A DNA stretch of 64,000 nucleotides from Leadbettera azotonutricia ZAS-9 (lineage in GTDB: Bacteria; Spirochaetota; Spirochaetia; Treponematales; Breznakiellaceae): positions 3,215,389-3,279,388 of the forward strand of contig NC_015577.1 of the NCBI RefSeq assembly GCF_000214355.1, in the 5' to 3' direction. This document shows, piece after piece, positions 35,115-47,292 of the stretch. The stretch's first letter is position 1. Each line of letters begins with the position of its first letter. A program made the position numbers and the translations under genes. Under the pieces are notes generated by a model. It had not been told where the DNA came from. It searched no databases and worked only from the letters and a program-made list of their open reading frames with translations.

Positions 35115-35198
35115 GCCCAGATGGTGGAATTGGTAGACACGCTGGTTTCAGGTACCAGTGCCGTTAAAAGCATGGAAGTTCGAGTCTTCTTCTGGGCA
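35115..35198 (+). tRNA. tRNA-Leu (anticodon CAG)
   Basis: This 84-nt cloverleaf has acceptor stem GCCCAGA/TCTGGGC and discriminator A. The anticodon stem CTGGT/ACCAG has loop TTCAGGT, giving anticodon CAG. The T-arm carries GTTCGAGTC. The AT-richer island begins right downstream, so this tRNA could have served as an integration site, although I find no repeat of its 3' end at the other side of the island. Confidence 0.95.
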
Positions 35199-35200
35199 AT

Positions 35201-35240
35201 AAGTTAATTCCTTACGTTGTAAGGAATTAACTTATTTTTT
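35201..35240 (+). terminator. Terminator of tRNA-Leu(CAG)
   Basis: AAGTTAATTCCTTAC (35201-35215) pairs perfectly with 35219-35233 and is followed by ATTTTTT. It begins 3 nt after the tRNA. Confidence 0.9.
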
Positions 35241-35577: not shown

Positions 35578-35764
35578 ATGCTAAAAAAATAAGTTTTTTT
35601 CAGCATTTACGATTCTTTAATCTGATCGGTCGGTCGATTTCCAAGTTGTTAAGCTTATAAATCCCTATTTATTTATGTTTTATCCAATTGACAAGATGAT
35701 AGAAGAAATTTTATCTAAAAATCCTAGATTTTGATCAAGAAAATGACCAAAATCTAGGATTTTT
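35578..35764. repeat. Two strong hairpins in the gene-free start of the island
   Basis: The interval 35241-35937 holds no gene that I can support. It contains a hairpin ATGCTAAAAAAA/TTTTTTTCAGCAT (35578-35606). It also contains a perfect 17-bp stem AAAAATCCTAGATTTTG (35717-35733 with 35748-35764, 14-nt loop) that could be a bidirectional terminator. A smaller GGCTAA/TTAGCC hairpin lies near 35516. No integrase is present. Confidence 0.6.
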
Positions 35765-35937
35765 CAATCATTTTTTTAACTTTGAGATAAAGCCCCCTAA
35801 TAAGGCTCTGTTACTATTAGAACGTTCAGTAACCATATTTCATACACGTTGTCCCCCTGATTTTATTCTACATATTCCTAGCTATCTAGAAAAGAAACAA
35901 AATTACAGGTATATTCACATAGTTGGAGGCAAGCTTA

Positions 35938-37086
35938 ATGGCAACTGCTGGTAAATCTGTAATGTCAGCATTGGAACAAGAAACCGGAAGAGAATGTTTC
36001 AATACATTCCGGCGCTGCCTCGACCGGGAACGGGCCTCAGTTGTTGAATATGATGACTTGGAACGGCAGTTCATGTCCGAACAGGGTGAGACTACCCGAT
36101 ACGGGAAATCCCGTGATATTTCCGAAATTGCCGCCGCTTGGGTAGAACGTGAGCCTGCTTTCAGGCTCTTTATGGATGGTTCCCGTCGTACCTATAAAAT
36201 CGCTGATATTCCCATAGGAACACAGGTTTTCCCCATCATCGCTGGACAAGTCGGTGTTGGGGTTTGCAAACGGGAAAATCGCCGTATTTCCGCTTGCGAT
36301 TTGTCTCTGCAAACTGTGTTGGCGCTTCCGGATAAGTTGGATACCGAGGGAAAGAACGAAAAGCAACATCGAGCTTTCCTGGCCAATCTGGCAGCCAAGT
36401 TGAATGCTGGCCAAAATCGCATCAACTTGGATAGGTTGCTATTATATCCAACACAGGCAAACGAAGATTTTGAGGATAAAGGAATTGCCCGTATCCAGGA
36501 CTACATGGTCGAGCGGGAAAAGGATATGGTACAGGAACTTGTCAACAGGAACATCATCAATGACCGCTCCTGGCTTATCAAAGATGGGTCGCTTGAATAT
36601 AACCGGATTACCAATAAGGATGATAGATTTTCTTTCAGCAGAATACGAAGTAATTACAAACGTGTGGTTGGGGTGTCAAAATCGTTTAATCCTGAATTGG
36701 CTAAACTCAAGAACAATAAGAGCGCCGCAGGAATGATTGCCAACCTTAAACCGCATGAACGAACTCCCGCACTCATGTATTCAACCGATCGGGTAGAAGG
36801 GAAATTTGCTGTATGGTATGTGCGGTTACGCGAACCTCGTCAAAGCCGCGGTCCCTTCGATGGGGTCGTTAAGGTCGAAAAAATCCTTGTGACCGATCAT
36901 GAAGCTGAATTTGGACTGGAAAGCTCAGAAGTTGACAATATCAGTGCATGGCTTGTGAATGAGCGGAATCCGGTCTGTTATGGCAAGGACGAACGCTGGG
37001 CAAATCATCTCTACCCTGTGTATCTTACAGAAACATACATAAAAAGCCGATATCGCGGCACTTTGCATTTTATCAATCTTTTTTAG
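35938..37086 (+). CDS. NurA-like nuclease domain protein (island gene 1)
   Basis: This 382-residue protein contains FRLFMDGSRRTYKIADI (D80-G-S-R-R), the DGSxR motif with the first catalytic Asp of NurA nucleases. A C-terminal part follows with YSTDRVEGKFAVWYVRL. NurA is a 5'-3' exonuclease and endonuclease that works with the hexameric HerA ATPase. The next gene is HerA-like and starts 11 bp later, as expected for the pair. The start at 35938 is an ATG with GGAGG nine bases upstream, preferred to a TTG five codons earlier. It opens a six-gene AT-rich operon; a role in destroying foreign DNA is inferred. Confidence 0.75.
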   Translation: MATAGKSVMSALEQETGRECFNTFRRCLDRERASVVEYDDLERQFMSEQGETTRYGKSRDISEIAAAWVEREPAFRLFMDGSRRTYKIADIPIGTQVFPIIAGQVGVGVCKRENRRISACDLSLQTVLALPDKLDTEGKNEKQHRAFLANLAAKLNAGQNRINLDRLLLYPTQANEDFEDKGIARIQDYMVEREKDMVQELVNRNIINDRSWLIKDGSLEYNRITNKDDRFSFSRIRSNYKRVVGVSKSFNPELAKLKNNKSAAGMIANLKPHERTPALMYSTDRVEGKFAVWYVRLREPRQSRGPFDGVVKVEKILVTDHEAEFGLESSEVDNISAWLVNERNPVCYGKDERWANHLYPVYLTETYIKSRYRGTLHFINLF

Positions 37087-37097
37087 GGAGAATTATT

Positions 37098-38807
37098 ATG
37101 TCAGGAAAAGTAATTGGCAGAATCGCTGCCTTGGAAAAATGTCCGACAACAATAGACAACTTCTGTTTTTGGACCGACAAGGATACTCTCCTCAATCCTT
37201 TTGATGTCGTTGTAGTTGACCATTTAAACGATAGCAAGACATACGGTGTCGTGGAAGAAATTTCACATATTACCGATTCTGACAGTTTTCTTGCAAATTT
37301 TATATCCAATGATTTTGGACAATTAGACGCAGTAATGAATACTGACCGTATTGGAATGAATTATGTAGCGGCTAAAGTTGTTGGGAACACAAAGAACATC
37401 TATATCCCTGTTCAGAATGGTGCAAAAGTTTCGCTTGGATTAAAAGATGACATACAAACGGCATTGGGTTTAGATGAAATTAAGAACCCTGTTGTCTGCG
37501 GGTATCTGGAAATGTATAGCGGACTGGACGAGGACAAGGTTGATCTTCCTGTTTATGTCAATTCGGATTTCCTTATCGGGCCGGAAGGCGCACATTTGAA
37601 TATTTCAGGAATCTCCGGGCTTGCTACAAAAACCTCGTATGCAATGTTCCTATTGAATGCCTTACAACAGCAAACTTTGCAGCAGCAGGCAGTTTCTGAA
37701 GATGAAAAAAAGAAAAAGAAAAGCGTCGCCTACATTTTTATGAATGTTAAGGGGCGCGATTTGCTTTCAATTGATGAGCCAAGTGAAAATTTGACTGAGA
37801 ACGATCGGGTTATGTATAAAAGTATGGGATTATCAGAAGCTCCATTTTGTAATGTCAAATACTTTTATCCCTATGGTGAACGCGGGACAGTAAAAAGTTA
37901 TGTTCGGTCAGAAATTCTTGACCACCAAATAAAGTCCAATCAAGCCAAGAAATTCAAGTTTACATTTAATGAAGATAATGAAAGCCTTGATTTGCTCTTT
38001 TCCAACATAGAAGATCCAAACCAGACAATAGAATCCATTATCAATTATATCATCTCCAAGCAACAGCCCTTTGATCGGGTTGATTCATGGGAAAGCATGC
38101 TCAAAGAAGTGCAGGAAATGGGCTCAAGAGGCAGTGATAAAGGGAATAAAGAAATATCAGTAATGAGCTGGCGTAAATTCAGACGTATTGTCCGTAAATC
38201 TGTGGAAACTGAAAAAATGTTTAATGACTCTGTAGAAGAGAGCAAAGGCGAAGTGCGGCTTGAAGAAGAAATCAAAAAGCTGAAAGCCAATGATGTATTT
38301 GTTGTTGATATTGCCAAACAAGATGAGAATATGCAGGCATTTGTTTTTGGTTCTGTGATGCAGGCAGTTACAAAACTCAAACTTGGTGAATTTGATGAGG
38401 ATATGGACGAAAAGCAACGCAGGCAAATACCGGACCGTATTGTGATTTTTGTCGATGAATTGAACAAATACGCTTCAGGCGATACGCCAAAATCATCACC
38501 GATTTTAAGGCTTTTGCTTGATATCGCAGAGCGTGGCCGTTCATTGGGTATTATTCTATTTTCGGCAGAGCAGTTCAAGAGTGCAATCCACAAGAGAATA
38601 ACAGGGAACTGTTCTACTCATGCCTATGGACGTACCAATAGTATTGAAGTCTCAGACAAAACATATTCGTTTGTACCTGCAACTTATAAAAATATGATGA
38701 CTCGTCTGAAACAGGGGCATTATATAATCCAGAACCCGGTGTTTCATTCGCTTTTGAAAATCAGGTTCCCCATGCCGCTTTATAAACAAGATAAAGGAGA
38801 TAATTAG
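37098..38807 (+). CDS. HerA-like DUF87 ATPase (island gene 2)
   Basis: This 569-residue protein has an N-terminal HerA barrel-like part (VIGRIAALEKCPTTIDNFCFW... DVVVVDHL), then an ATPase core. The nucleotide loop is LNISGISGLATKTSY (residues 171-180 GISGLATKTS), in which the Gly before Lys is replaced by Thr. Walker B is IVIFVDELNKYASGD (about 448-462), followed by RLLLDIAERGRSLGIILFSAEQF, typical of HerA/FtsK-type motors. A coiled, charged insert lies at about 345-420. Next to a NurA-like gene, the product is probably a DNA-translocating hexamer that feeds the nuclease. GGGAGA precedes the ATG. Confidence 0.8.
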   Translation: MSGKVIGRIAALEKCPTTIDNFCFWTDKDTLLNPFDVVVVDHLNDSKTYGVVEEISHITDSDSFLANFISNDFGQLDAVMNTDRIGMNYVAAKVVGNTKNIYIPVQNGAKVSLGLKDDIQTALGLDEIKNPVVCGYLEMYSGLDEDKVDLPVYVNSDFLIGPEGAHLNISGISGLATKTSYAMFLLNALQQQTLQQQAVSEDEKKKKKSVAYIFMNVKGRDLLSIDEPSENLTENDRVMYKSMGLSEAPFCNVKYFYPYGERGTVKSYVRSEILDHQIKSNQAKKFKFTFNEDNESLDLLFSNIEDPNQTIESIINYIISKQQPFDRVDSWESMLKEVQEMGSRGSDKGNKEISVMSWRKFRRIVRKSVETEKMFNDSVEESKGEVRLEEEIKKLKANDVFVVDIAKQDENMQAFVFGSVMQAVTKLKLGEFDEDMDEKQRRQIPDRIVIFVDELNKYASGDTPKSSPILRLLLDIAERGRSLGIILFSAEQFKSAIHKRITGNCSTHAYGRTNSIEVSDKTYSFVPATYKNMMTRLKQGHYIIQNPVFHSLLKIRFPMPLYKQDKGDN

Positions 38808-38809
38808 CT

Positions 38810-39320
38810 ATGAGTGATAGTCATACAGAGCTAGATAACACCGACGATGGATTCGCAATGTGGTGGAATTGGTTCTCAACAACTATGAAAAAACCAATGC
38901 GTCGCTTTAATTTCTGGGTTTACTTGCTTGTTGGTATCGTTGGTGCGGGTGGTGCAGGTATTTGGATTTCATTCATTAATAAGGCCAACTCACTTCCTGC
39001 CATTCTTATCGCCATGTTAACATTCTATCCAGCTACGGCAGTTGCATCGTGTATGGACTTTGTCTTTGAAGATAGTGAAAAAAAATTTGTTAAAGGATTT
39101 GCAATTATCAGTGGGTTCATTCTGTTTTTATTGGCTTTTTTCATATGTATTCTATCATCCTATTTTTTAGCTTTTTTGGCATGTTTTTTTTTTGGTTATT
39201 TTGTGGTGGCTTGCTAATGCTGAAAATCCTAAATTATCAGATATTGGAAAACCATTATCTGCTGTAGGTGGAGATCCAACAGAAAAAGTGTCTGGAAATT
39301 CAGGAGGTATAGCATTATGA
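38810..39320 (+). CDS. Membrane protein split by a T10 tract (island gene 3)
   Basis: Conceptual translation gives 135 residues, ending in a TAA at 39215-39217. The protein has about four hydrophobic segments after a charged N-terminus (MSDSHTELDNTDDGF). A run of ten T (39184-39193) lies in the last helix. Skipping one T moves into a frame that stays open to a TGA at 39318-39320, adds ANAENPKLSDIGKPLSAV and ends in GNSGGIAL. That TGA overlaps the ATG of the DGQHR gene (ATGA), as at other junctions of this operon. I therefore infer a 169-residue product made by slippage, or an indel at the homopolymer. GGAG precedes the start. No family recognised. Confidence 0.6.
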
Positions 39321-40600
39321 ATACCTTTCCAGCAATTCGTATTCTCCAGCCCTTAGGTGAATTTTATTTAACGGCTATCCCAGCAGAATATTTACTGAAA
39401 ATATGTTTCAGCCATCGTCATATTAGGCATGATGCAGATGAAAAAGGGCATGTTCAAGATGAAGGGCATCAAAGAAGGCTTAGCATACTGCGACTAAATG
39501 AAATATCTAGGTATCTTGAAACACAGGATGCAACATTGCCAGGAACTATTATAATTGCAGCAAACTGCAAAGAAGATGGCACTATCCTTGACCCAAATAA
39601 TGGAGAGGAAAATGTAAAACGTTGGATAATTGCGCCAAAAGAAGGTGATGACCGAGAAATTGTTAGAATAAACATTCCAACTACAGATAAACTAGGTGCC
39701 GTTGTGGATGGACAACATCGATTATGGGGATTTGAAAATGTATCAGATGAATTGAAAAAAATCTTGTTGCCATGTGCTATATTTATTGATCTTCCTACAC
39801 CTCAGCAGGCAGCCATTTTTGCAACGATTAATTTTAACCAAAAACCTGTAAATAAAAGTCAATCTTATGAATTATTTGGGTACAATCTTGATGATGAATT
39901 AGAAGCATCATGGTCCCCAGACAAGCTGGCCGTTTTTTTTGCACGTAAGTTAAATATTGACAATGAATCACCTTTTAAAGATCACATAAAAGTTGCAGCT
40001 CAAGACGATAGAGTTTTAGAAGAAATAAATAAATTGCGTCAAAAAGAATGGTCAATTTCTACTGCAACGATTGTGGAAGGCATTCTTTTATTAATTACTA
40101 AGAATGCCAAACAAGATCGTGATATTTTACATAAATATCCGATTAATTCCCGATCAAGAAAATCGCTCAGCAATATAAGAATACATGGAGAGCCTCCTCC
40201 ATTTAGAGGAATATATTTGGCAGCAGATCACGATATTGTGATATACAAAACGCTTATTAATTTTTTTTCGGCGGCAAATGAACTTTTTTGGGGAAAGGAA
40301 AATTGTGGCTTGATTCGTAAGACTGCTGGAGTTCAAGCGTTGTTTAGAGTCCTCAGGGAATTATTGCCAGATCAGCTTGAGAAAAATGACTTGCAACAAG
40401 TAACTTGGATATCTATCTTGGAGAAGGCTGGAAAATTAGATTTTTCAAATATCACTCTTTTTGAATCTTCTGGAAGAGGGCGCAAACGTATCCAAGACGC
40501 AATTCTTGTTTCTATTGGTAAAATGAGTCTAGGCGATATTATGGATCAAGATTTTCGCAAATACCTTGAAAATATGAATAGAGGGGTTAATAATGTTTGA
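39317..40600 (+). CDS. DGQHR-domain protein, DndB-like (island gene 4)
   Basis: This 427-residue protein contains LGAVVDGQHRLWGFENV (DGQHR at residues 131-135) followed by FATINFNQKPVNKSQSYELFG. These are the signatures of the DGQHR/DndB domain, related to ParB-like folds. DndB is a regulator and DNA-binding partner in phosphorothioation (dnd) operons, and other DGQHR proteins occur in restriction-like islands. No dndA/C/D/E genes are near, so this is not a standard dnd locus. The ATG overlaps the extended frame of gene 3, and the 3' end overlaps the HSP90-type gene by 8 bp. GGAGG lies upstream. Confidence 0.82.
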   Translation: MNTFPAIRILQPLGEFYLTAIPAEYLLKICFSHRHIRHDADEKGHVQDEGHQRRLSILRLNEISRYLETQDATLPGTIIIAANCKEDGTILDPNNGEENVKRWIIAPKEGDDREIVRINIPTTDKLGAVVDGQHRLWGFENVSDELKKILLPCAIFIDLPTPQQAAIFATINFNQKPVNKSQSYELFGYNLDDELEASWSPDKLAVFFARKLNIDNESPFKDHIKVAAQDDRVLEEINKLRQKEWSISTATIVEGILLLITKNAKQDRDILHKYPINSRSRKSLSNIRIHGEPPPFRGIYLAADHDIVIYKTLINFFSAANELFWGKENCGLIRKTAGVQALFRVLRELLPDQLEKNDLQQVTWISILEKAGKLDFSNITLFESSGRGRKRIQDAILVSIGKMSLGDIMDQDFRKYLENMNRGVNNV

Positions 40601-42161
40601 ACATGAGCCTATATTTGGAAAAAACGTTATAGAAACTCTTTCTGAGGGAATGTATGATAACCCGATGTTTCTTTTTAGAGAATATGTACAAAATTCAACA
40701 GATGCTATAGATGCTTCTATTCGACAGGGTACTCTGAAAAAAGGCGAAGGGCAAATTGAAATCACCATTGATATTGATAAACGTTTATTGTCTTTTGAAG
40801 ATAATGGAATCGGTATAGCTCATAATAATGTTTCGAAAATGCTGGCAAATATCGGAGATTCACAAAAGGATCGTAATACAGATAAGGGATTTAGAGGAAT
40901 TGGGCGGCTTGGCGGTTTAGGATACTGCCAAAAAGTACGCTTCGAGACTTCATCTAAAGGTGAACCAATAAAAAGCATTCTGGAATGGGATGCCCGAAAT
41001 TTGCATGAGATTTTGGCGGATAAAAATGAAAAAATTAATGCAGGGCAGCTTATAAAACGTATTACCAGCACATGGGAAGAAAAATGCCCTACTGAATCCC
41101 ATTTTTTCATTGTTTCATTGATAAATGTTAATGAAAGCAGTGATGAATTATTGGATGTTGAGGAAGTCGCAAAGTATTTGCAGATGGTTGCACCAGTGCC
41201 ATTTGATTATGCGAAATTCCCATTTATTGAAAAGATTGAAAAATTTATCCGCGATGAAAAGTTACCATCTTTGCATGAATACAGGTTAAATATAAATAGT
41301 GATGAAATTCGTAAAGGATATGAAACACCGCTAGCTATAGATGATAATAAGACAATAGATATTTTGGATATAGTATGCAGAAAAGTTATATCAGGTGGAG
41401 AGACCATTGGGTGGTATTGGTTTTGTATCAGCAAATTTGAAGGTGTATTACCTAAAAAATGCTGGCAAAGAAATATTCGGCTTCGTAAGGCAAATATCCA
41501 GATTGGCGAAGCGGACTGCCTCTCAAATCACCCCAAGAGGGGCCAGGCTCTTTGGAAAGAAGATCGGGGTAATAATTATTTTTTAGGTGAAATTCATGCT
41601 TTGGATGATAACTTGATACCAAATTCCCGCCGGGATTATTTTAATCAAGATATGCCCTGTCGTAGATTTGAAATCGCCTTGCAAAGTGAGTTTTCTGGTT
41701 TATACCAGCTCTATCATGACGCCAGTACCGTCCGTTCAGCTTATAATCTTATGCGTGGGGCAAGTGTTGCACAAAAGGAATATGAAATTAAAGAGAAGAA
41801 AGGCGATTTTTTTGATTCGCAAGAACGGAATAAAGCACAAATAAAAGTGCAAACAGCTTTGGAAAAAGCCGAGGAAGCTAAAAAAACCATTGAAAAATTT
41901 CAAATTAAACTAAACTCTGGGGAGAAAGATGCTGAACCTCTGGCTCAAGTTGTTGATGTATATAGAAATGAAACCCGGGAAGATCGTATTCATGCTTTTG
42001 ATCCGCCCGCTCGTCCCAAAAAAGGATATACCAAAGATGAGATCAAGAAGAATGTCAAAGATGTTCTTGATACAGTCTTTGAAGTGTTGAATAAAATGCT
42101 GCCTGAGGACGAAGCTGCCCCAATTCGTGAGGCAATCATTAAAAAAGTGATCGGTAAATGA
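40593..42161 (+). CDS. HSP90-type (GHKL) ATPase (island gene 5)
   Basis: This 522-residue protein has the Bergerat ATP-binding fold at its N-terminus. The N-box is LFREYVQNSTDAIDA (about 27-41), then LSFEDNGIGIAHNNV (G1) and DKGFRGIGRLGGLGYC (G2, about 96-111). The middle part has an RRDYF segment, and the C-terminus contains a charged coiled coil (about 400-450, KAEEAKKTIEKFQIKL). It looks like the HtpG-like or MORC-like ATPases found in several antiviral islands. It overlaps the DGQHR gene by 8 bp and the radical SAM gene by 4 bp. Confidence 0.82.
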   Translation: MFEHEPIFGKNVIETLSEGMYDNPMFLFREYVQNSTDAIDASIRQGTLKKGEGQIEITIDIDKRLLSFEDNGIGIAHNNVSKMLANIGDSQKDRNTDKGFRGIGRLGGLGYCQKVRFETSSKGEPIKSILEWDARNLHEILADKNEKINAGQLIKRITSTWEEKCPTESHFFIVSLINVNESSDELLDVEEVAKYLQMVAPVPFDYAKFPFIEKIEKFIRDEKLPSLHEYRLNINSDEIRKGYETPLAIDDNKTIDILDIVCRKVISGGETIGWYWFCISKFEGVLPKKCWQRNIRLRKANIQIGEADCLSNHPKRGQALWKEDRGNNYFLGEIHALDDNLIPNSRRDYFNQDMPCRRFEIALQSEFSGLYQLYHDASTVRSAYNLMRGASVAQKEYEIKEKKGDFFDSQERNKAQIKVQTALEKAEEAKKTIEKFQIKLNSGEKDAEPLAQVVDVYRNETREDRIHAFDPPARPKKGYTKDEIKKNVKDVLDTVFEVLNKMLPEDEAAPIREAIIKKVIGK

Positions 42162-44113
42162 ATCGTCGAGTTTTACTGATAGAACCGAATTATAGAAATA
42201 AATATCCACCTATGGGCCTTATGAAATTGGCAATGTATCATCGCCTTCAAGGGGATGATGTTGTTTTCTACAAAGGTGAATTATCACAATTCATTTTAAT
42301 GGAAGTTGTACAGGATACAATTCTGAAGCTGTCGGAAATTTATAGTATTGTCGACTGGAAAAAGATGACGCCGGAGATTCAAACATATATAAAAATAGGA
42401 AAAATAAATTCTGACACGGCATTTGAATTAGCGTCACAACGACCATTTGTTTTAAAATGGCTGGAGCATTTTAAAAAATACTATCATACAGGTGGTTATT
42501 ACTTAAGACCACGCTGGGATCGTGTGTGTGTGACCACGCTTTTTACATTCTATTGGGATATCACGATAGAAACAATTGAATTTGCAAAAAAAGTCTGTAA
42601 ATATTCAGATCAAGTACTTGTTGGAGGTATCCTAGCTTCAGTCATACCAATAAAAGTTAAGGAAAAGACAGGTATTACGCCAATCGAAGGATGTCTTTAC
42701 TGTAAGAGTCTCCGTGGCGATCCTCCAATAGGAAAGCCTATTGATACTCTTCCTTTAGATTATTCAATACTTGAAGAAATTGATTACCAATATCCAGCCT
42801 CGGATGCTTATTATGCCTATGCAACACGTGGATGCATAAACCGCTGCGAGTTTTGTGCCGTTCCAATTCTAGAACCTGGCCACATGAGAAATTTTCCTAT
42901 AAAATCAAAACTTAATGAAATAAAAAAGCGTTTTGGGGAACAACGAAATCTGCTTTTATTAGATAATAATGTATTTGCATCGGAAAAGTTTGATAAGATA
43001 ATAGATGAAATCCATGATTCTGGCTTTTATACGGGAGCAACTTATATACCTCCGAATAAATTGGATATAGCAGCTAGACAATTGAAGGATGGGTGGAATG
43101 ATCGAGCATATATCCGTATGGCAACTAGGCTTATAAATGAGTTTGTTGAAAAACTCGAAGGTGAAAGGCATGATGCTTATTACTCCATGTTAATGGACAT
43201 GGGATTATTGCATAACTATACTGCAACAAAAGATAATATCCTTTCATTTTATAAATTTATTAAAGATGATTATGAAAAAGCTCGTTCAAAAAGACCGCTT
43301 GTGAGATTTATAGATTTTAATCAGGGTATGGATGCAGCTCCCAGGCTAGCAACACAGGAAAAAATGAAAAAACTGGCTACTATTGCTATAAGGCCGCTTC
43401 GTATTGCCTTTGATTCGTGGAGTGAACGGGAAATATACGTCCGTGCCATTCGGCTTGCAAAAGAAAATGACATAACACAAATGAGTAATTATTTACTTTA
43501 TAACTTTCGTGATGCACCAATAGATCTATATCGTCGTTTGCTCCTTAATATTGACCTTTGTGACGCATTAGGCGTTAATATTTATTCATTTCCAATGAAA
43601 TATCACCCAATAATGGAGGAAGAGTGGTATAAAAATCGGGATTATATTGATCGTCCCAATTGGACTCGAAAATCAATCCGTACTATTCAAGCTGTATTAA
43701 ATTCTACTGCAGGCAAAATCGGGAAAGGTCGAACATTCTTTTTTAAGGCATTTGGGCGAAATGAGGAAGAATTTGAGGAACTTCTCAGAATGCCCGAAGC
43801 ATTTATTATTAAACGCTGGGATGCTGAATTAAGCGGACTTACTGATAAATGGAGAAAGGCTTATAACAAGCTATCAGATGATGAACGAAACTTTTCTGAC
43901 AAAATCATCGCCGAAAATATCTTTGAGAGTTCAAAATGGCAAAAATCTTCTGCTAACATAAAGAAAGTCCTTGATATTTATACAATTGAAAGAGATGATA
44001 TCCCGCTTGTTGAAGAAGAGGCTAAAACTAGACATATTAGAAAATTTGAACAGTCTTGTCCGAAAAACATTTCTGCGATATGTACAAAATTGTTGGAAAA
44101 AGGCAAGTTTTGA
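42158..44113 (+). CDS. Radical SAM protein with B12-binding-like N-terminus (island gene 6)
   Basis: This 651-residue protein starts RRVLLIEPNYRNKYPPMGLMKLAMYHRLQGDDV, the pattern of cobalamin-binding-type domains attached to radical SAM enzymes. The cluster motif is C226-INR-C230-EF-C233 (CxxxCxxC) after YYAYATRG. A further EGCLYC pair (C179, C182) could hold another cluster. A long C-terminal part (about 330-650) has no family I can name. Radical SAM enzymes use 5'-deoxyadenosyl radicals, here for an unknown substrate. The ATGA overlap with the ATPase gene places it in the operon. Modification of DNA or of a partner protein is a hypothesis. Confidence 0.82.
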   Translation: MNRRVLLIEPNYRNKYPPMGLMKLAMYHRLQGDDVVFYKGELSQFILMEVVQDTILKLSEIYSIVDWKKMTPEIQTYIKIGKINSDTAFELASQRPFVLKWLEHFKKYYHTGGYYLRPRWDRVCVTTLFTFYWDITIETIEFAKKVCKYSDQVLVGGILASVIPIKVKEKTGITPIEGCLYCKSLRGDPPIGKPIDTLPLDYSILEEIDYQYPASDAYYAYATRGCINRCEFCAVPILEPGHMRNFPIKSKLNEIKKRFGEQRNLLLLDNNVFASEKFDKIIDEIHDSGFYTGATYIPPNKLDIAARQLKDGWNDRAYIRMATRLINEFVEKLEGERHDAYYSMLMDMGLLHNYTATKDNILSFYKFIKDDYEKARSKRPLVRFIDFNQGMDAAPRLATQEKMKKLATIAIRPLRIAFDSWSEREIYVRAIRLAKENDITQMSNYLLYNFRDAPIDLYRRLLLNIDLCDALGVNIYSFPMKYHPIMEEEWYKNRDYIDRPNWTRKSIRTIQAVLNSTAGKIGKGRTFFFKAFGRNEEEFEELLRMPEAFIIKRWDAELSGLTDKWRKAYNKLSDDERNFSDKIIAENIFESSKWQKSSANIKKVLDIYTIERDDIPLVEEEAKTRHIRKFEQSCPKNISAICTKLLEKGKF

Positions 44114-44186
44114 AACTAAGAACACAGATATGATATATGTATTGTAACCTTAAGGAATGGTAAAAGATATGAATCAACGGTAATTA

Positions 44187-44465
44187 TTAAAAAAACTTCT
44201 CAAGGCTAAAGGCCGGAATTCTCGAGGCAGCAAATCCTTCGGCATCTCGGGTTATGATGTAGCTCACTGCGAGGCTTTCCCCGATGGTGAACTAAACACA
44301 GTCTTCAAAATCGAGCCAGGCAAAGTCAACCGCTCTGCAGATTTCCACACCGGGCAGGGATGAGTTTAGCATGAGTACAAAAGCAAAGACCCTCGTGGCA
44401 GGAGCAAAATTGCTTTATAGATACGATGCTTGACAACAATGTTATGCGTCCACCGAAAAAAAATG
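44187..44465 (-). pseudogene. Decayed PIN-domain toxin gene
   Basis: The minus strand translates as SNFAPATRVFAFVLMLNSSLPGVEIC, then AVDFAWLDFEDCV, a TAG stop, and FTIGESLAVSYIITRDAEGF...IPAFSLEKFF. This matches the C-terminal two thirds of VapC-like PIN proteins, with the conserved DFED and TRD acidic residues. The stop replaces what is probably a Gln codon, and the N-terminal VDxN-like part is in another frame. No intact antitoxin is seen. It lies in the otherwise gene-free interval 44114-44570. Confidence 0.65.
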
Positions 44466-44570
44466 CGGTTCGCCTTCTTGCCCGTAATTGCGTCTGCTGA
44501 TACGATGGCGAATTGGATGTATGGAAATTCGATCCGGCCAAAACTAAACATTTTATGAAAGCGTCCTAAG

Positions 44571-44963
44571 TCAACAACCCACTACCGTTATCCCATCCTT
44601 AACCATCCACTTGAGCCGCTCTTTCCAGGCAGGTTTTTCCTGGCCTGGCGTCGCATAGCGGCGGTCAAAAATGACGAGATAGCAATGTACCGGGGTCTTG
44701 CTATTCGGGGAAAACCTGTCCCGGTATCCCAGGGTTTGTTTAATGCCATCTTCCTGCACAGCTTCAAAAGATCGACCGGGCTTGACGAGCTTGATCTCAA
44801 TTATATTCCACTGGCCATGGTATTCTACTGCTATATCCATGCGCCCACGGCCAGCTGCATACTCCCGTTCTATACGCCCCGAACCATTGGTAACCCTCTG
44901 CAGAAAGGCCATCAGCAAGAGATGGGGAAAAGCCTCGGGGTAATTCAGTTTTGATTCCCACAC
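44571..44963 (-). pseudogene. PD-(D/E)XK nuclease part, separated from its AAA domain by a stop codon
   Basis: This 130-codon frame contains FPHLLLMAFLQRVTNGSGRIEREYAAGRGRMDIAVEYHGQWNIIEIKL, with the GRxRxDI...EIK arrangement of PD-(D/E)XK nucleases. The next gene upstream ends ...LLKAFQDFW-TAA, and the codons after the TAA read in the same frame SNSEVWESKLNYPEAF into this ORF. In relatives the two parts form one polypeptide. The break is thus a single nonsense codon. Independent translation from the ATG at 44963 is possible, but no good ribosome site is visible. Confidence 0.75.
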
Positions 44964-44975
44964 TTCCGAATTGCT

Positions 44976-46157
44976 TTACCAAAAATCCTGGAAAGCTTTA
45001 AGCAATGCATCCATATCAAGGGTACCGTCAGGTTTCTCCCACCGCCATTCAGGCGCCGGTATTGCCAGCTGGGTACTGTACGTAATTTCCCTGGCAATGA
45101 CCTCCCGGTAAATCGGGTTCGCCACTCCGGGAGTACCCTTTTCTATCGTGACCAAACCCAGGTCAAGACACAGCCTGAATGGCTCTCCCTGGGCCATGAG
45201 AGGATCGGGTTCTCCGGTTATAAGGGATTCCATAACTTTGCGAATCCGCAAATCTTCCAGCCGGTATGCCAGAGCGTCCAGGTGGGTTTCCCGGGCCAAT
45301 ACCATCTGTTCCCGAGCTTCCCGGATGTGTTCTACAGTGACAGTATCCCGGCTATCCACGTCCAATACCCGCATGGTTGCACGCTGGAGCAGGGAATTGA
45401 CAATCCAGGGCTGGCCCCGGGACTGATCATAAACATACTCAAGGGCTTCCCTGGTAATTTGCTGTCCTGTTTCCTCAGTGCGCTGAGCGAAAAGCCGGGC
45501 AATATCTTCCTTCCGGAAGTTGGACAACGTAGCGGAATCTTCTTTTATATTGAAGGGCGAGCCGGGGTTAGGCGGGATTCCGCCCTTCGTCGCAGTTATA
45601 TAGTCCTTTAAGTCCCTCATGCCTACAAGGGCTATGGAAACAGGGAATTTGCCTATCCCCCGATTGGCGAAACCGTCCCGAAGCTGCCGCAAGAAACTAA
45701 TGAGAGCTTCTCCCTGCAATACATCCACTTCATCAAAAAGAACGATTAAAGATTTAGGAGCAAGTAATTCAGCCCAATTGGACAAAATACTATTCAAAGC
45801 AGCAAAGGGGGTCTCTGATCCTACTACCGGAACCGGCAACCCGAATTGGGCGCTCCACCTTCTAATGGCATCACACATTGCGGGTATTGCCCGTTCCGCT
45901 TCGGGTACACCCTGACAGGTTTCTACGCTCACATAACAGGCTACAACATCATCGCCGACGTTGATCTGCCGCATCCAGCTTTGCAAAAAGGTAGTCTTCC
46001 CTGTCTGCCGGGGGGCATGAAGCACCCAATAGAGCTTATCCCCAATATACCGGTGAAGCTGGGCGCCTACCAGACGTTCTTCGGGCGGCAGCATATAATG
46101 ATCATTCGGGTTACAGGGACCCGTGGTATTAAAAAACCGAACTTTACGTTTTTCCAT
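44976..46157 (-). CDS. AAA ATPase (AAA_35-like), truncated by an in-frame stop
   Basis: This 393-residue protein starts MEKRKVRFFNTTGPCNPNDHYMLPPEERL. It has Walker A HAPRQTGKTTFLQSW (about 44-58), Walker B LIVLFDEVDVLQGE (about 130-143) and a winged C-terminal region. The pattern fits the AAA-like ATPases common in bacteroidetes and spirochaetes that normally carry a C-terminal PD-(D/E)XK domain. Here a TAA separates them. A decayed relative lies at 17196-17343. The start at 46157 follows the family; the track upstream in the same frame is non-homologous. Function unknown; the gene flanks the island and could be a mobile or defence-related gene. Confidence 0.8.
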   Translation of the reverse strand: MEKRKVRFFNTTGPCNPNDHYMLPPEERLVGAQLHRYIGDKLYWVLHAPRQTGKTTFLQSWMRQINVGDDVVACYVSVETCQGVPEAERAIPAMCDAIRRWSAQFGLPVPVVGSETPFAALNSILSNWAELLAPKSLIVLFDEVDVLQGEALISFLRQLRDGFANRGIGKFPVSIALVGMRDLKDYITATKGGIPPNPGSPFNIKEDSATLSNFRKEDIARLFAQRTEETGQQITREALEYVYDQSRGQPWIVNSLLQRATMRVLDVDSRDTVTVEHIREAREQMVLARETHLDALAYRLEDLRIRKVMESLITGEPDPLMAQGEPFRLCLDLGLVTIEKGTPGVANPIYREVIAREITYSTQLAIPAPEWRWEKPDGTLDMDALLKAFQDFW

Positions 46158-46266
46158 CTCAATTATAAAGTATACCCTGGAAAGGTGAAAAAAAGAAGCA
46201 TACAGGGAATTCCCTTGACACAAAACAAGAGGATTGGGATAGTAGGGAAAATATTTTAAGGAAATT

Positions 46267-47292
46267 ATGCGGAAAAATAGGTTCTCCCTGCTGTACGTCA
46301 TCTTCGCCGGGGTGCTCGCTGCGGCGCTTATGGGCTGTTCTAAACCAATACCGACACGGGTGGAGTTTGCCCTGGGTACGGTGTGCTCAATATCACTCTA
46401 CGAAAAGGGGAATGTCCGGGTATACCAGGATATTTTCGGCAGGCTGGCGGAAATCGAAAAGCGGATGAGCGTTGGCCTGGCGGACTCGGATATATCCCGG
46501 ATAAATGCAGCTGCCGGGATTGAGCCGGTGAAGGTTCATGCCGATGTGTTTGAGGTGGTGGAACGGGCCATGTATTACGCCGAGATTTCCGGGGGCGCCT
46601 TTGATCCCACTGTTGAACCTTTGGTTTCCCTCTGGGGGATTGGAGGCGATGCTCCGAGGGTTCCTTCCCAGGGGGAAATTGATGCGGCTATATCCCTGAT
46701 AAACTGGCGGGATATAGTCCTGGACCGGGAACAGGGCACGATTTTCCTGAAACATCCCGGCATGGCCCTGGATCTGGGGGCTATCGCCAAGGGCTATGCA
46801 GCGGACGAGGTGGAGGAGATTGTCAAAAAGGCAAAAATCCCCAGGGCGCTTATCGATTTAGGGGGAAATATCCTTACCTACGGCGAAAAGGCAGACCATA
46901 GCCCCTGGAGGGTGGGCATCCAGAACCCTAACGGATTGCGGGGGTCCTATATCGGGATCATACAATTCCGTAATAAAACCATGGTAACCTCCGGGGTATA
47001 CGAACGGTTTTTCGAGGAAAACGGGGTCCATTATCATCATATTCTTTCCACTGCCGACGGGTATCCTGTGCGGAATGGGCTCCTGTCGGTTTCTATCATT
47101 ACCGACAGGTCCATGGACGCGGACGGCCTCTCCACCTCGGTATTCGCCCTGGGCTACGAGCGAGGGAGAGCCCTGGTTGAATCCCTGGAGGGGGTGCAGG
47201 CGGTTTTTGTCTTTGAGGATATGAGCATACGCCTGACCAAGGGAACCGATTTTATCCTCACTGATGATGCCTACCAGCTTGTATCCGACTGA
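46267..47292 (+). CDS. apbE: FAD:protein FMN transferase, lipoprotein
   Basis: This 341-residue lipoprotein (signal ending ALMGC) attaches FMN to Thr/Ser of FMN_bind proteins outside the cytoplasm. Family marks are FALGTVCSISLYE, ISGGAFDPTVEPLVSLWG (about 97-114), ALDLGAIAKGYAADE (about 173-187), LIDLGGNIL and the C-terminal DRSMDADGLSTSVFALG with the metal-binding Asp. It opens a + strand operon with ubiD, ubiA and ubiX and an ABC importer. Likely substrates are the FMN-binding lipoproteins at 54247, 54689 and 55478. TAAGGA precedes the ATG. Confidence 0.95.
   Translation: MRKNRFSLLYVIFAGVLAAALMGCSKPIPTRVEFALGTVCSISLYEKGNVRVYQDIFGRLAEIEKRMSVGLADSDISRINAAAGIEPVKVHADVFEVVERAMYYAEISGGAFDPTVEPLVSLWGIGGDAPRVPSQGEIDAAISLINWRDIVLDREQGTIFLKHPGMALDLGAIAKGYAADEVEEIVKKAKIPRALIDLGGNILTYGEKADHSPWRVGIQNPNGLRGSYIGIIQFRNKTMVTSGVYERFFEENGVHYHHILSTADGYPVRNGLLSVSIITDRSMDADGLSTSVFALGYERGRALVESLEGVQAVFVFEDMSIRLTKGTDFILTDDAYQLVSD

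What the first reader, a model, noticed from the sequence alone, without database searches (positions are those of the whole stretch)
35938..44113. Candidate undescribed system: NurA, HerA, membrane protein, DGQHR, HSP90-type ATPase and radical SAM
Six genes are tightly coupled (gaps of 2-11 bp or overlaps of 4-8 bp), AT-richer than the surroundings, and start right after a tRNA-Leu. They combine a nuclease/translocase pair, a DndB-like DNA-associated domain, a GHKL ATPase and a B12-type radical SAM enzyme. The parts are typical of restriction or DNA-modification islands, but I know no named system with this set. A working idea is that the radical SAM enzyme, with the DGQHR protein, marks DNA or a partner and the HerA-NurA pair degrades unmarked DNA.
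Basis: partly seen in the sequence, partly recalled or inferred. Interest (0 to 1): 0.92.

Follow-up and report, generated by a model that had tools for sequence, protein, structure and literature searches.

The report
Mobile radical-SAM/Hsp90-like nuclease operon
A mobile cluster of genes found patchily in many bacteria always pairs an unusual radical-chemistry enzyme with an Hsp90-like ATPase and usually a DNA-shredding motor-nuclease; it looks like an undescribed defence system that may tell own DNA from foreign DNA by a chemical mark, which has not been tested.

Summary
The operon is real. At 35938-44113 (+) lie a bacterial-type NurA nuclease, its partner HerA, a small membrane protein (probably interrupted at a T10 run), a DGQHR (DndB-type) protein, an Hsp90-like GHKL ATPase and a B12-fold radical SAM (rSAM) enzyme. 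Related loci show what is core. HSP90-like + rSAM is nearly invariant (51 of 54 well-flanked loci). NurA and HerA always travel together (35/35). DGQHR and the membrane protein are accessory here, but DGQHR recurs beside rSAM in a distant proteobacterial branch. There the NurA-HerA module is replaced by ParB-like/SNF2-helicase/ParB-like genes and sometimes PIN + a second HSP90, on conjugative plasmids and viral contigs. The cassette is patchy (1-3% of genomes per group; absent from 98 near relatives), AT-rich and horizontally spread. In 391 genomes of one class, all 8 with this HerA also carry the rSAM. No PADLOC model or accessible paper describes the set. The genome has no DndC. The most likely reading is a restriction-type conflict system in which rSAM supplies a discriminating chemical mark and NurA-HerA destroys unmarked DNA. 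Unit and composition are well supported, defence is likely, and the DNA-mark step is inference (about 0.4).

The parts
35115..35198 (+). tRNA-Leu (cag) upstream of the operon; probably not part of it
   Evidence: ARAGORN; perfect 18-nt hairpin plus T-run just after it at 35198-35236
35938..37086 (+). nurA: bacterial-type NurA (RNase H-like) nuclease, 382 aa
   Evidence: AF2 model pLDDT 80.5; Foldseek top hits D. radiodurans NurA 7f6d_G E=1.8e-12 and S. solfataricus NurA E=7.5e-8; structural Z 21.0; invariant LDGSR-like and KDGS motifs
37098..38807 (+). herA: bacterial-type HerA DNA translocase, 569 aa
   Evidence: Profile hit to D. radiodurans HerA, E=1.6e-48, sharing the unusual P-loop GISGxATKTSYA and Walker B DELNKYA; those Lys/Thr and Asp/Glu are functional in the Deinococcus protein (PMC9960219)
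38810..39217 (+). small membrane protein, 135 aa as annotated; probably interrupted at a T10 run (39184-39193), with another frame open to 39320
   Evidence: ORF, hydropathy, frame reading; no Pfam/NCBIfam/PADLOC family
39317..40600 (+). DGQHR (DndB-type, ParB/Srx-fold family) protein, 427 aa
   Evidence: TIGR03187 170 bits (cut-off 58.9); TIGR04172 full length, 392 bits (cut-off 450); Pfam DndB 46.8 bits (cut-off 29.1)
40593..42161 (+). Hsp90-like GHKL ATPase, 522 aa
   Evidence: HATPase_c_3 42.2 bits; profile hits HtpG/Hsp90 N-domains, E=1e-15; invariant Bergerat residues E30, N34, D37, D70, G74, G102, G104
42158..44113 (+). B12-fold radical SAM enzyme, 651 aa
   Evidence: Invariant C226-C230-C233; AF2 model pLDDT 91.5; Foldseek top TsrM E=2.4e-6, then MiaB; structural Z 12-15 to AprD4, TsrM, MgmA, OxsB, TokK, CysS

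Best explanation
This is a horizontally mobile, multi-gene conflict (anti-invader) system of restriction type. Its core is a B12-fold radical SAM enzyme plus an Hsp90-like ATPase, joined to an exchangeable DNA-destroying module. In this window the module is a NurA-HerA machine: a HerA hexamer pumps double-stranded DNA into a NurA nuclease dimer that degrades it (mechanism known for relatives). Proposed logic: the rSAM enzyme puts a chemical mark on host DNA, or on something bound to it; the DGQHR protein reads the mark or regulates marking; the Hsp90-like ATPase acts as the ATP-driven clamp or switch licensing the complex; NurA-HerA destroys DNA without the mark. Shown here: gene identities, conserved catalytic motifs, obligate co-occurrence, module exchange, patchy horizontal spread. 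Inferred: defence role (about 0.75), rSAM substrate being DNA (about 0.4), the gating role of the ATPase (weak).
For: (1) Fixed unit: nurA-herA-HSP90-rSAM, often with ATGA overlaps, in Clostridia, Bacteroidales, Victivallales/Kiritimatiellae, Spirochaetota and a Melainabacteria bin; one locus keeps the same four genes in another order (L143). (2) Of 54 well-flanked loci, HSP90 is in 51 and NurA and HerA are always together, 35/35. (3) In 391 genomes of one class all 8 with this HerA are among the 11 with the rSAM (hypergeometric 1.3e-14). (4) NurA and HerA are each closest in the PDB to the two halves of one known complex, D. radiodurans NurA-HerA, an ATP-driven dsDNA nuclease (PMC9960219); NurA also matches the nuclease of TdpAB, Z 15. 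(5) DGQHR proteins belong to the ParB/Srx fold seen in modification-linked restriction (PMC4619093) and recur beside rSAM in a distant branch. (6) Patchy: 0 of 98 near relatives, 4/393, 11/391, 3/295 and 9/388 in wider samples; on conjugative plasmids; one copy inside a DISARM-like locus; neighbours include type I methylase, DarG, PARIS AriA, DRT and HindVP-type genes.
Against: No experiment shows phage or plasmid restriction. Nothing shows that the rSAM acts on DNA: its structural neighbours act on tryptophan, sugars, antibiotics, proteins and tRNA. DGQHR is missing from most NurA-HerA loci and from the whole genome in 20 of the 21 genomes or records searched, so it cannot be the essential reader. 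The defence-neighbour comparison is only suggestive, since the small control set happened to include a type I restriction locus. Cobalamin binding is not shown.
Confidence: 0.42

Rival explanations
1. Conflict system in which rSAM chemistry is not a DNA mark but an activation or signalling step: it modifies a partner protein (HerA, NurA, the ATPase) or makes a small molecule or nucleotide upon infection, and the nuclease is the effector.
For: B12-fold rSAM enzymes with peptide, protein or small-molecule substrates are the nearest structural neighbours (TsrM, MgmA, OxsB, AprD4). The rSAM + HSP90 pair is kept while the nuclease changes, as expected of a sensor/activator core.
Against: Repeated pairing with DGQHR and ParB-like proteins points to DNA handling. 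The viperin family is only a weak match confined to the rSAM domain (Z about 7).
Confidence: 0.25
2. Mobile-element function: the operon serves the plasmids or islands that carry it (exclusion of competing elements, stability, addiction) rather than the cell.
For: Conjugative plasmids in Novosphingobium, Rhizobium and Mesorhizobium carry the proteobacterial form. ParB-family proteins are common in plasmid biology.
Against: Many copies lie in chromosomal or bin contigs without plasmid genes in view. This rival overlaps with defence and is hard to separate from it.
Confidence: 0.15
3. DNA repair or end resection: NurA-HerA works in recombination, helped by the other genes.
For: Deinococcus and archaeal NurA-HerA are linked to resection (PMC9960219). 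Other bacterial HerA homologues lie beside SbcCD (Mre11-Rad50) genes.
Against: No SbcCD gene was seen next to this cassette in the loci examined; patchy distribution with absence from 98 near relatives; NurA-HerA is swapped for unrelated nuclease and helicase modules; recent work doubts the resection role even in archaea (PMC12977600).
Confidence: 0.08
4. Ordinary neighbours: six unrelated genes that happen to lie in one AT-rich island.
For: Only the small membrane protein lacks any recognisable relative.
Against: Same four genes in the same order across several phyla, and the DGQHR also in the nearest relative, L002.
Confidence: 0.01

Closest known systems
Bacterial NurA-HerA complex (Deinococcus radiodurans, PDB 7f6d)
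   Same: Both partners match by fold or profile; same atypical HerA P-loop and Walker B
   Different: The related bacterial HerA genes whose surroundings were read here lie beside SbcCD genes; in this cassette HerA is tied to HSP90-like and rSAM genes
Tdp system (TdpAB nuclease-translocase; TdpC DNA sulfur modification, the latter from memory)
   Same: NurA model matches TdpAB chain G in 8wfd/8wet, Z about 15; logic of a mark plus a HerA/NurA-type destroyer
   Different: TdpA not found by the HerA profile even at E 10; here an rSAM and an Hsp90-like ATPase are the constant partners
Dnd / DndFGH and Ssp phosphorothioation systems
   Same: A DndB-family DGQHR protein; HerA-type ATPases also occur in DndH (PMC10853773)
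   Different: No DndC in this genome and DndD only as a weak sub-cut-off match; rSAM + Hsp90-like core instead
HerA-DUF4297 and HerA-Sir2 defence pairs
   Same: HerA translocase coupled to a nuclease or effector in defence (PMC12977600)
   Different: The partner is NurA, with two further near-obligate genes
MADS (mad8)
   Same: HerA has a weak hit to mad8, E=8e-7
   Different: None of the six operon proteins hits another MADS model at E up to 0.01
PD-Lambda-5 (protein A)
   Same: A PD-Lambda-5_A-like ParB-family protein sits directly beside rSAM in three relatives
   Different: Present in only 4 of 54 loci and absent from this window

Membership tests
Bacterial NurA-HerA pair | RNase H-like NurA fold with conserved active-site acids | tested here: met
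   Top fold match is D. radiodurans NurA, then archaeal NurA; invariant DGS motifs at D80 and D216; sequence match alone is weak, E=0.49
Bacterial NurA-HerA pair | HerA ATPase with its P-loop and Walker B, adjacent gene | tested here: met
   E=1.6e-48 with the same motifs; adjacent, and together in 35/35 loci; hexamer state not testable here
B12-binding-fold radical SAM enzymes | CxxxCxxC cluster motif | tested here: met
   C226, C230, C233 invariant in 27 sequences
B12-binding-fold radical SAM enzymes | N-terminal cobalamin-type domain fused to the rSAM domain | tested here: met
   Fold matches TsrM, OxsB, TokK, CysS; one relative hits Pfam B12-binding at E=1.8e-5, below the curated cut-off
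B12-binding-fold radical SAM enzymes | Actual cobalamin binding and SAM cleavage | not testable with these tools
   Needs purified protein; AprD4, the top structural match, has this fold without using cobalamin (from memory)
Hsp90/GHKL ATPases | Bergerat ATP-binding motifs | tested here: met
   Invariant residues; HtpG/Hsp90 N-domain hits
HtpG (housekeeping Hsp90) | Curated HtpG model score | tested here: not met
   33.8 bits against a cut-off of 371
DGQHR domain proteins (TIGR03187) | Score above cut-off and DGQHR motif | tested here: met
   170.4 bits against 58.85; motif present
DNA phosphorothioation-associated DGQHR protein 1 (TIGR04172) | Score above the curated cut-off | tested here: not met
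   392 bits against 450, though full length
Dnd phosphorothioation system | DndC and DndD present | tested here: not met
   DndC absent from the genome; DndD only 44 bits over 55 residues, below the cut-off
Tdp system | TdpA/TdpB homologues | tested here: inconclusive
   NurA fold matches TdpAB chain G, Z about 15; no sequence hit of HerA to TdpA
Tdp system | TdpC modification enzyme | not tested
   No model at hand
MADS | mad1-mad8 set | tested here: not met
   Only a weak mad8 hit among the six proteins

The most novel reading that the evidence does not exclude
A widespread, undescribed class of anti-invader system built on a B12-type radical SAM enzyme that writes a previously unknown mark on DNA (perhaps carbon, phosphorus or sulfur chemistry that ordinary methyltransferases cannot do), checked by an Hsp90-like ATPase clamp, with interchangeable destroyers: NurA-HerA, SNF2/ParB-like, PIN.
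Probability: 0.3. Interest if true: 0.92.

Novelty: new variant of a known kind. Interest (0 to 1): 0.78.

Why it matters
No defence system I could find pairs a radical SAM enzyme of this type with an Hsp90-like ATPase, and the pair is kept while the nuclease module changes, so the pair is likely where the recognition chemistry lies. If the enzyme marks DNA, it would be a new route to DNA modification, readable by mass spectrometry in easily grown carriers such as Novosphingobium aromaticivorans (plasmid pNL1). If it does not, the system would show a new way to switch a HerA-NurA DNA shredder on and off. Either way the gene set defines a searchable, testable family.

Tried and rejected
Six-gene core: rejected; DGQHR and the membrane protein are accessory. 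Known named system: no PADLOC, NCBIfam or Pfam assignment covers the set; paper searches for combinations of NurA, HerA, radical SAM, Hsp90/GHKL and DndB gave no description, but the library lacks most subscription papers and all bioRxiv. Tdp papers: not held. Dnd partner elsewhere in the genome: DndC absent. Degenerate HerA P-loop as a sign of an inactive ATPase: rejected, because Deinococcus HerA has the same loop and uses that Lys and Thr. Island integrated at the tRNA-Leu: no duplicated end found. PADLOC neighbour enrichment: neighbours matched 268 families against 117 in a random control from many of the same genomes, but models are redundant and the control held a type I locus, so it is not counted as proof. 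The short (about 310 aa) rSAM proteins in other viral contigs (L064-L082) are a different family and were left out. PDB sequence search with the rSAM profile gave only one marginal, unrelated hit. Membrane protein against its positional counterpart in L002: no detectable similarity.

Full report
What is in the window. Six ORFs lie on the + strand from 35938 to 44113. Spacing is +11, +2, +99, -8 and -4 bp, with good ribosome-binding sites before several genes. The 99-bp gap follows a T10 run at 39184-39193; another frame is open after the run and ends in a TGA that overlaps the DGQHR start by 4 bp, so the small membrane gene is probably frameshifted there by error, slippage or mutation. GC is 35.6-39.1% for genes 2-6 and 46.3% for nurA, against 48-55% around. 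A tRNA-Leu ends 739 bp upstream; no duplicated tRNA end was found.

Protein identities. No family library recognises the first protein beyond a marginal PADLOC PbeC hit (E=0.006), but its AlphaFold2 model (pLDDT 80.5) matches Deinococcus NurA best and archaeal NurA second, far above anything else in Foldseek, with structural Z 21.0. The HerA profile hits Deinococcus HerA at 1.6e-48, including the unusual loop GISGxATKTSYA whose Lys and Thr bind ATP and Mg in that protein (PMC9960219). The DGQHR protein is a DndB-family member. The fifth protein is an Hsp90-like GHKL ATPase with intact Bergerat residues. The sixth has an invariant CxxxCxxC motif, and its high-confidence model (pLDDT 91.5) matches B12-fold radical SAM enzymes (TsrM first in Foldseek, AprD4/TsrM/MgmA/OxsB/TokK in structural alignment) and MiaB. 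Cobalamin binding and substrate are unknown.

The cassette elsewhere. A scan of 84,980 genomes with the rSAM protein gave 34 loci. Nearly every one with enough flank reads nurA-herA-HSP90-rSAM on one strand. Whole-genome samples with an rSAM alignment found it in 4 of 393 genomes of the window's phylum, 11 of 391 of a Clostridium locus's class, 3 of 295 of a Bacteroides locus's class and 9 of 388 of a Kiritimatiellae locus's phylum (these counts include the centre genome), and in none of 98 close relatives (whose weak matches cover only short stretches of the rSAM domain). In the same 391 genomes this HerA occurs in 8, all rSAM-positive (hypergeometric 1.3e-14; the genes are linked, so this measures joint presence, not independent gains).

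Core and modules. Over 54 loci with adequate flank: rSAM 54 (by selection), HSP90 51, NurA 35, HerA 35, any DGQHR 10 besides the window. A second branch, on alphaproteobacterial plasmids (several typed as conjugative) and viral contigs, reads ParB-like / small protein / SNF2 helicase / ParB-like, DGQHR, rSAM, HSP90, sometimes with PIN and a second HSP90. A third form has a PD-Lambda-5_A-like protein beside rSAM without HSP90. One genome combines NurA-HerA, PD-Lambda-5_A-like and two HSP90s (L119), and one keeps the four genes in another order (L143). On an rSAM tree the forms cluster but need several changes of module (14 in all, least possible 4), and the window's nearest relative is the Kiritimatiellae locus L002, at 57% identity, which also carries DGQHR; its extra gene before DGQHR shows no detectable similarity to the window's membrane protein. 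Taxonomically mixed clades, such as a Melainabacteria bin among Bacteroidales, suggest horizontal transfer, though bin contamination is possible.

Function. HerA-NurA machines degrade double-stranded DNA from ends in relatives (PMC9960219; PMC12977600), and HerA-nuclease pairs are established in defence. DGQHR and ParB-like proteins belong to the ParB/Srx fold used in modification-linked restriction (PMC4619093). This genome lacks DndC, so the DGQHR protein does not serve a Dnd system here. Neighbours of the cassette include restriction-methylation, DarG, PARIS, reverse-transcriptase and HindVP-type genes; one copy lies in a DISARM-like locus and one is followed by an AAA gene and a macro-domain gene. 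The control comparison is only suggestive.

Confidence by layer: real functional unit 0.97; DNA-directed conflict system 0.75; rSAM product is a mark on DNA 0.4; Hsp90-like ATPase as gate or clamp 0.3. 'Tdp' statements beyond the PDB entries are from memory. Searches of PADLOC stop at 2023 models and the paper library is partial, so prior description elsewhere cannot be excluded.

Noticed in passing
window 44571-46301 (-): A 130-aa PDDEXK_9 nuclease ORF and a 441-aa AAA ATPase ORF lie 12 bp apart on the minus strand just downstream; from memory these two parts are usually one AAA+PDDEXK protein, so this may be a split gene.
   Followed up: no
window 39184-39193: T10 run just before the stop of the membrane-protein ORF, with another frame open to the DGQHR start; possible phase-variable or frameshifted gene.
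   Followed up: partly
window 35706-35775: Long imperfect inverted repeat (32-nt arms, 81% complementary, 6-nt loop) in the intergenic stretch before nurA; could be a terminator or regulatory structure.
   Followed up: no
window 44114-44570: Stretch after the operon with no ORF of 80 aa or more; a decayed gene was not ruled out.
   Followed up: no
L064-L082: Viral contigs carry a separate family of short (about 310 aa) rSAM proteins sharing the cysteine motif region; different from the operon's enzyme.
   Followed up: no
L055:2996-13478: rSAM + HSP90 directly behind DrmA, DrmB and a NERD-helicase gene, a DISARM-like locus on a viral contig.
   Followed up: partly
L014:10370-11899 and L017:10785-12434: The slot after rSAM varies: a reverse transcriptase in L014 and a second HSP90-like protein in L017; other loci have unnamed families there.
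   Followed up: partly
L083-L085: Other bacterial HerA homologues on plasmids sit beside SbcCD (Mre11-Rad50) genes, the repair-type arrangement, unlike the cassette here.
   Followed up: partly
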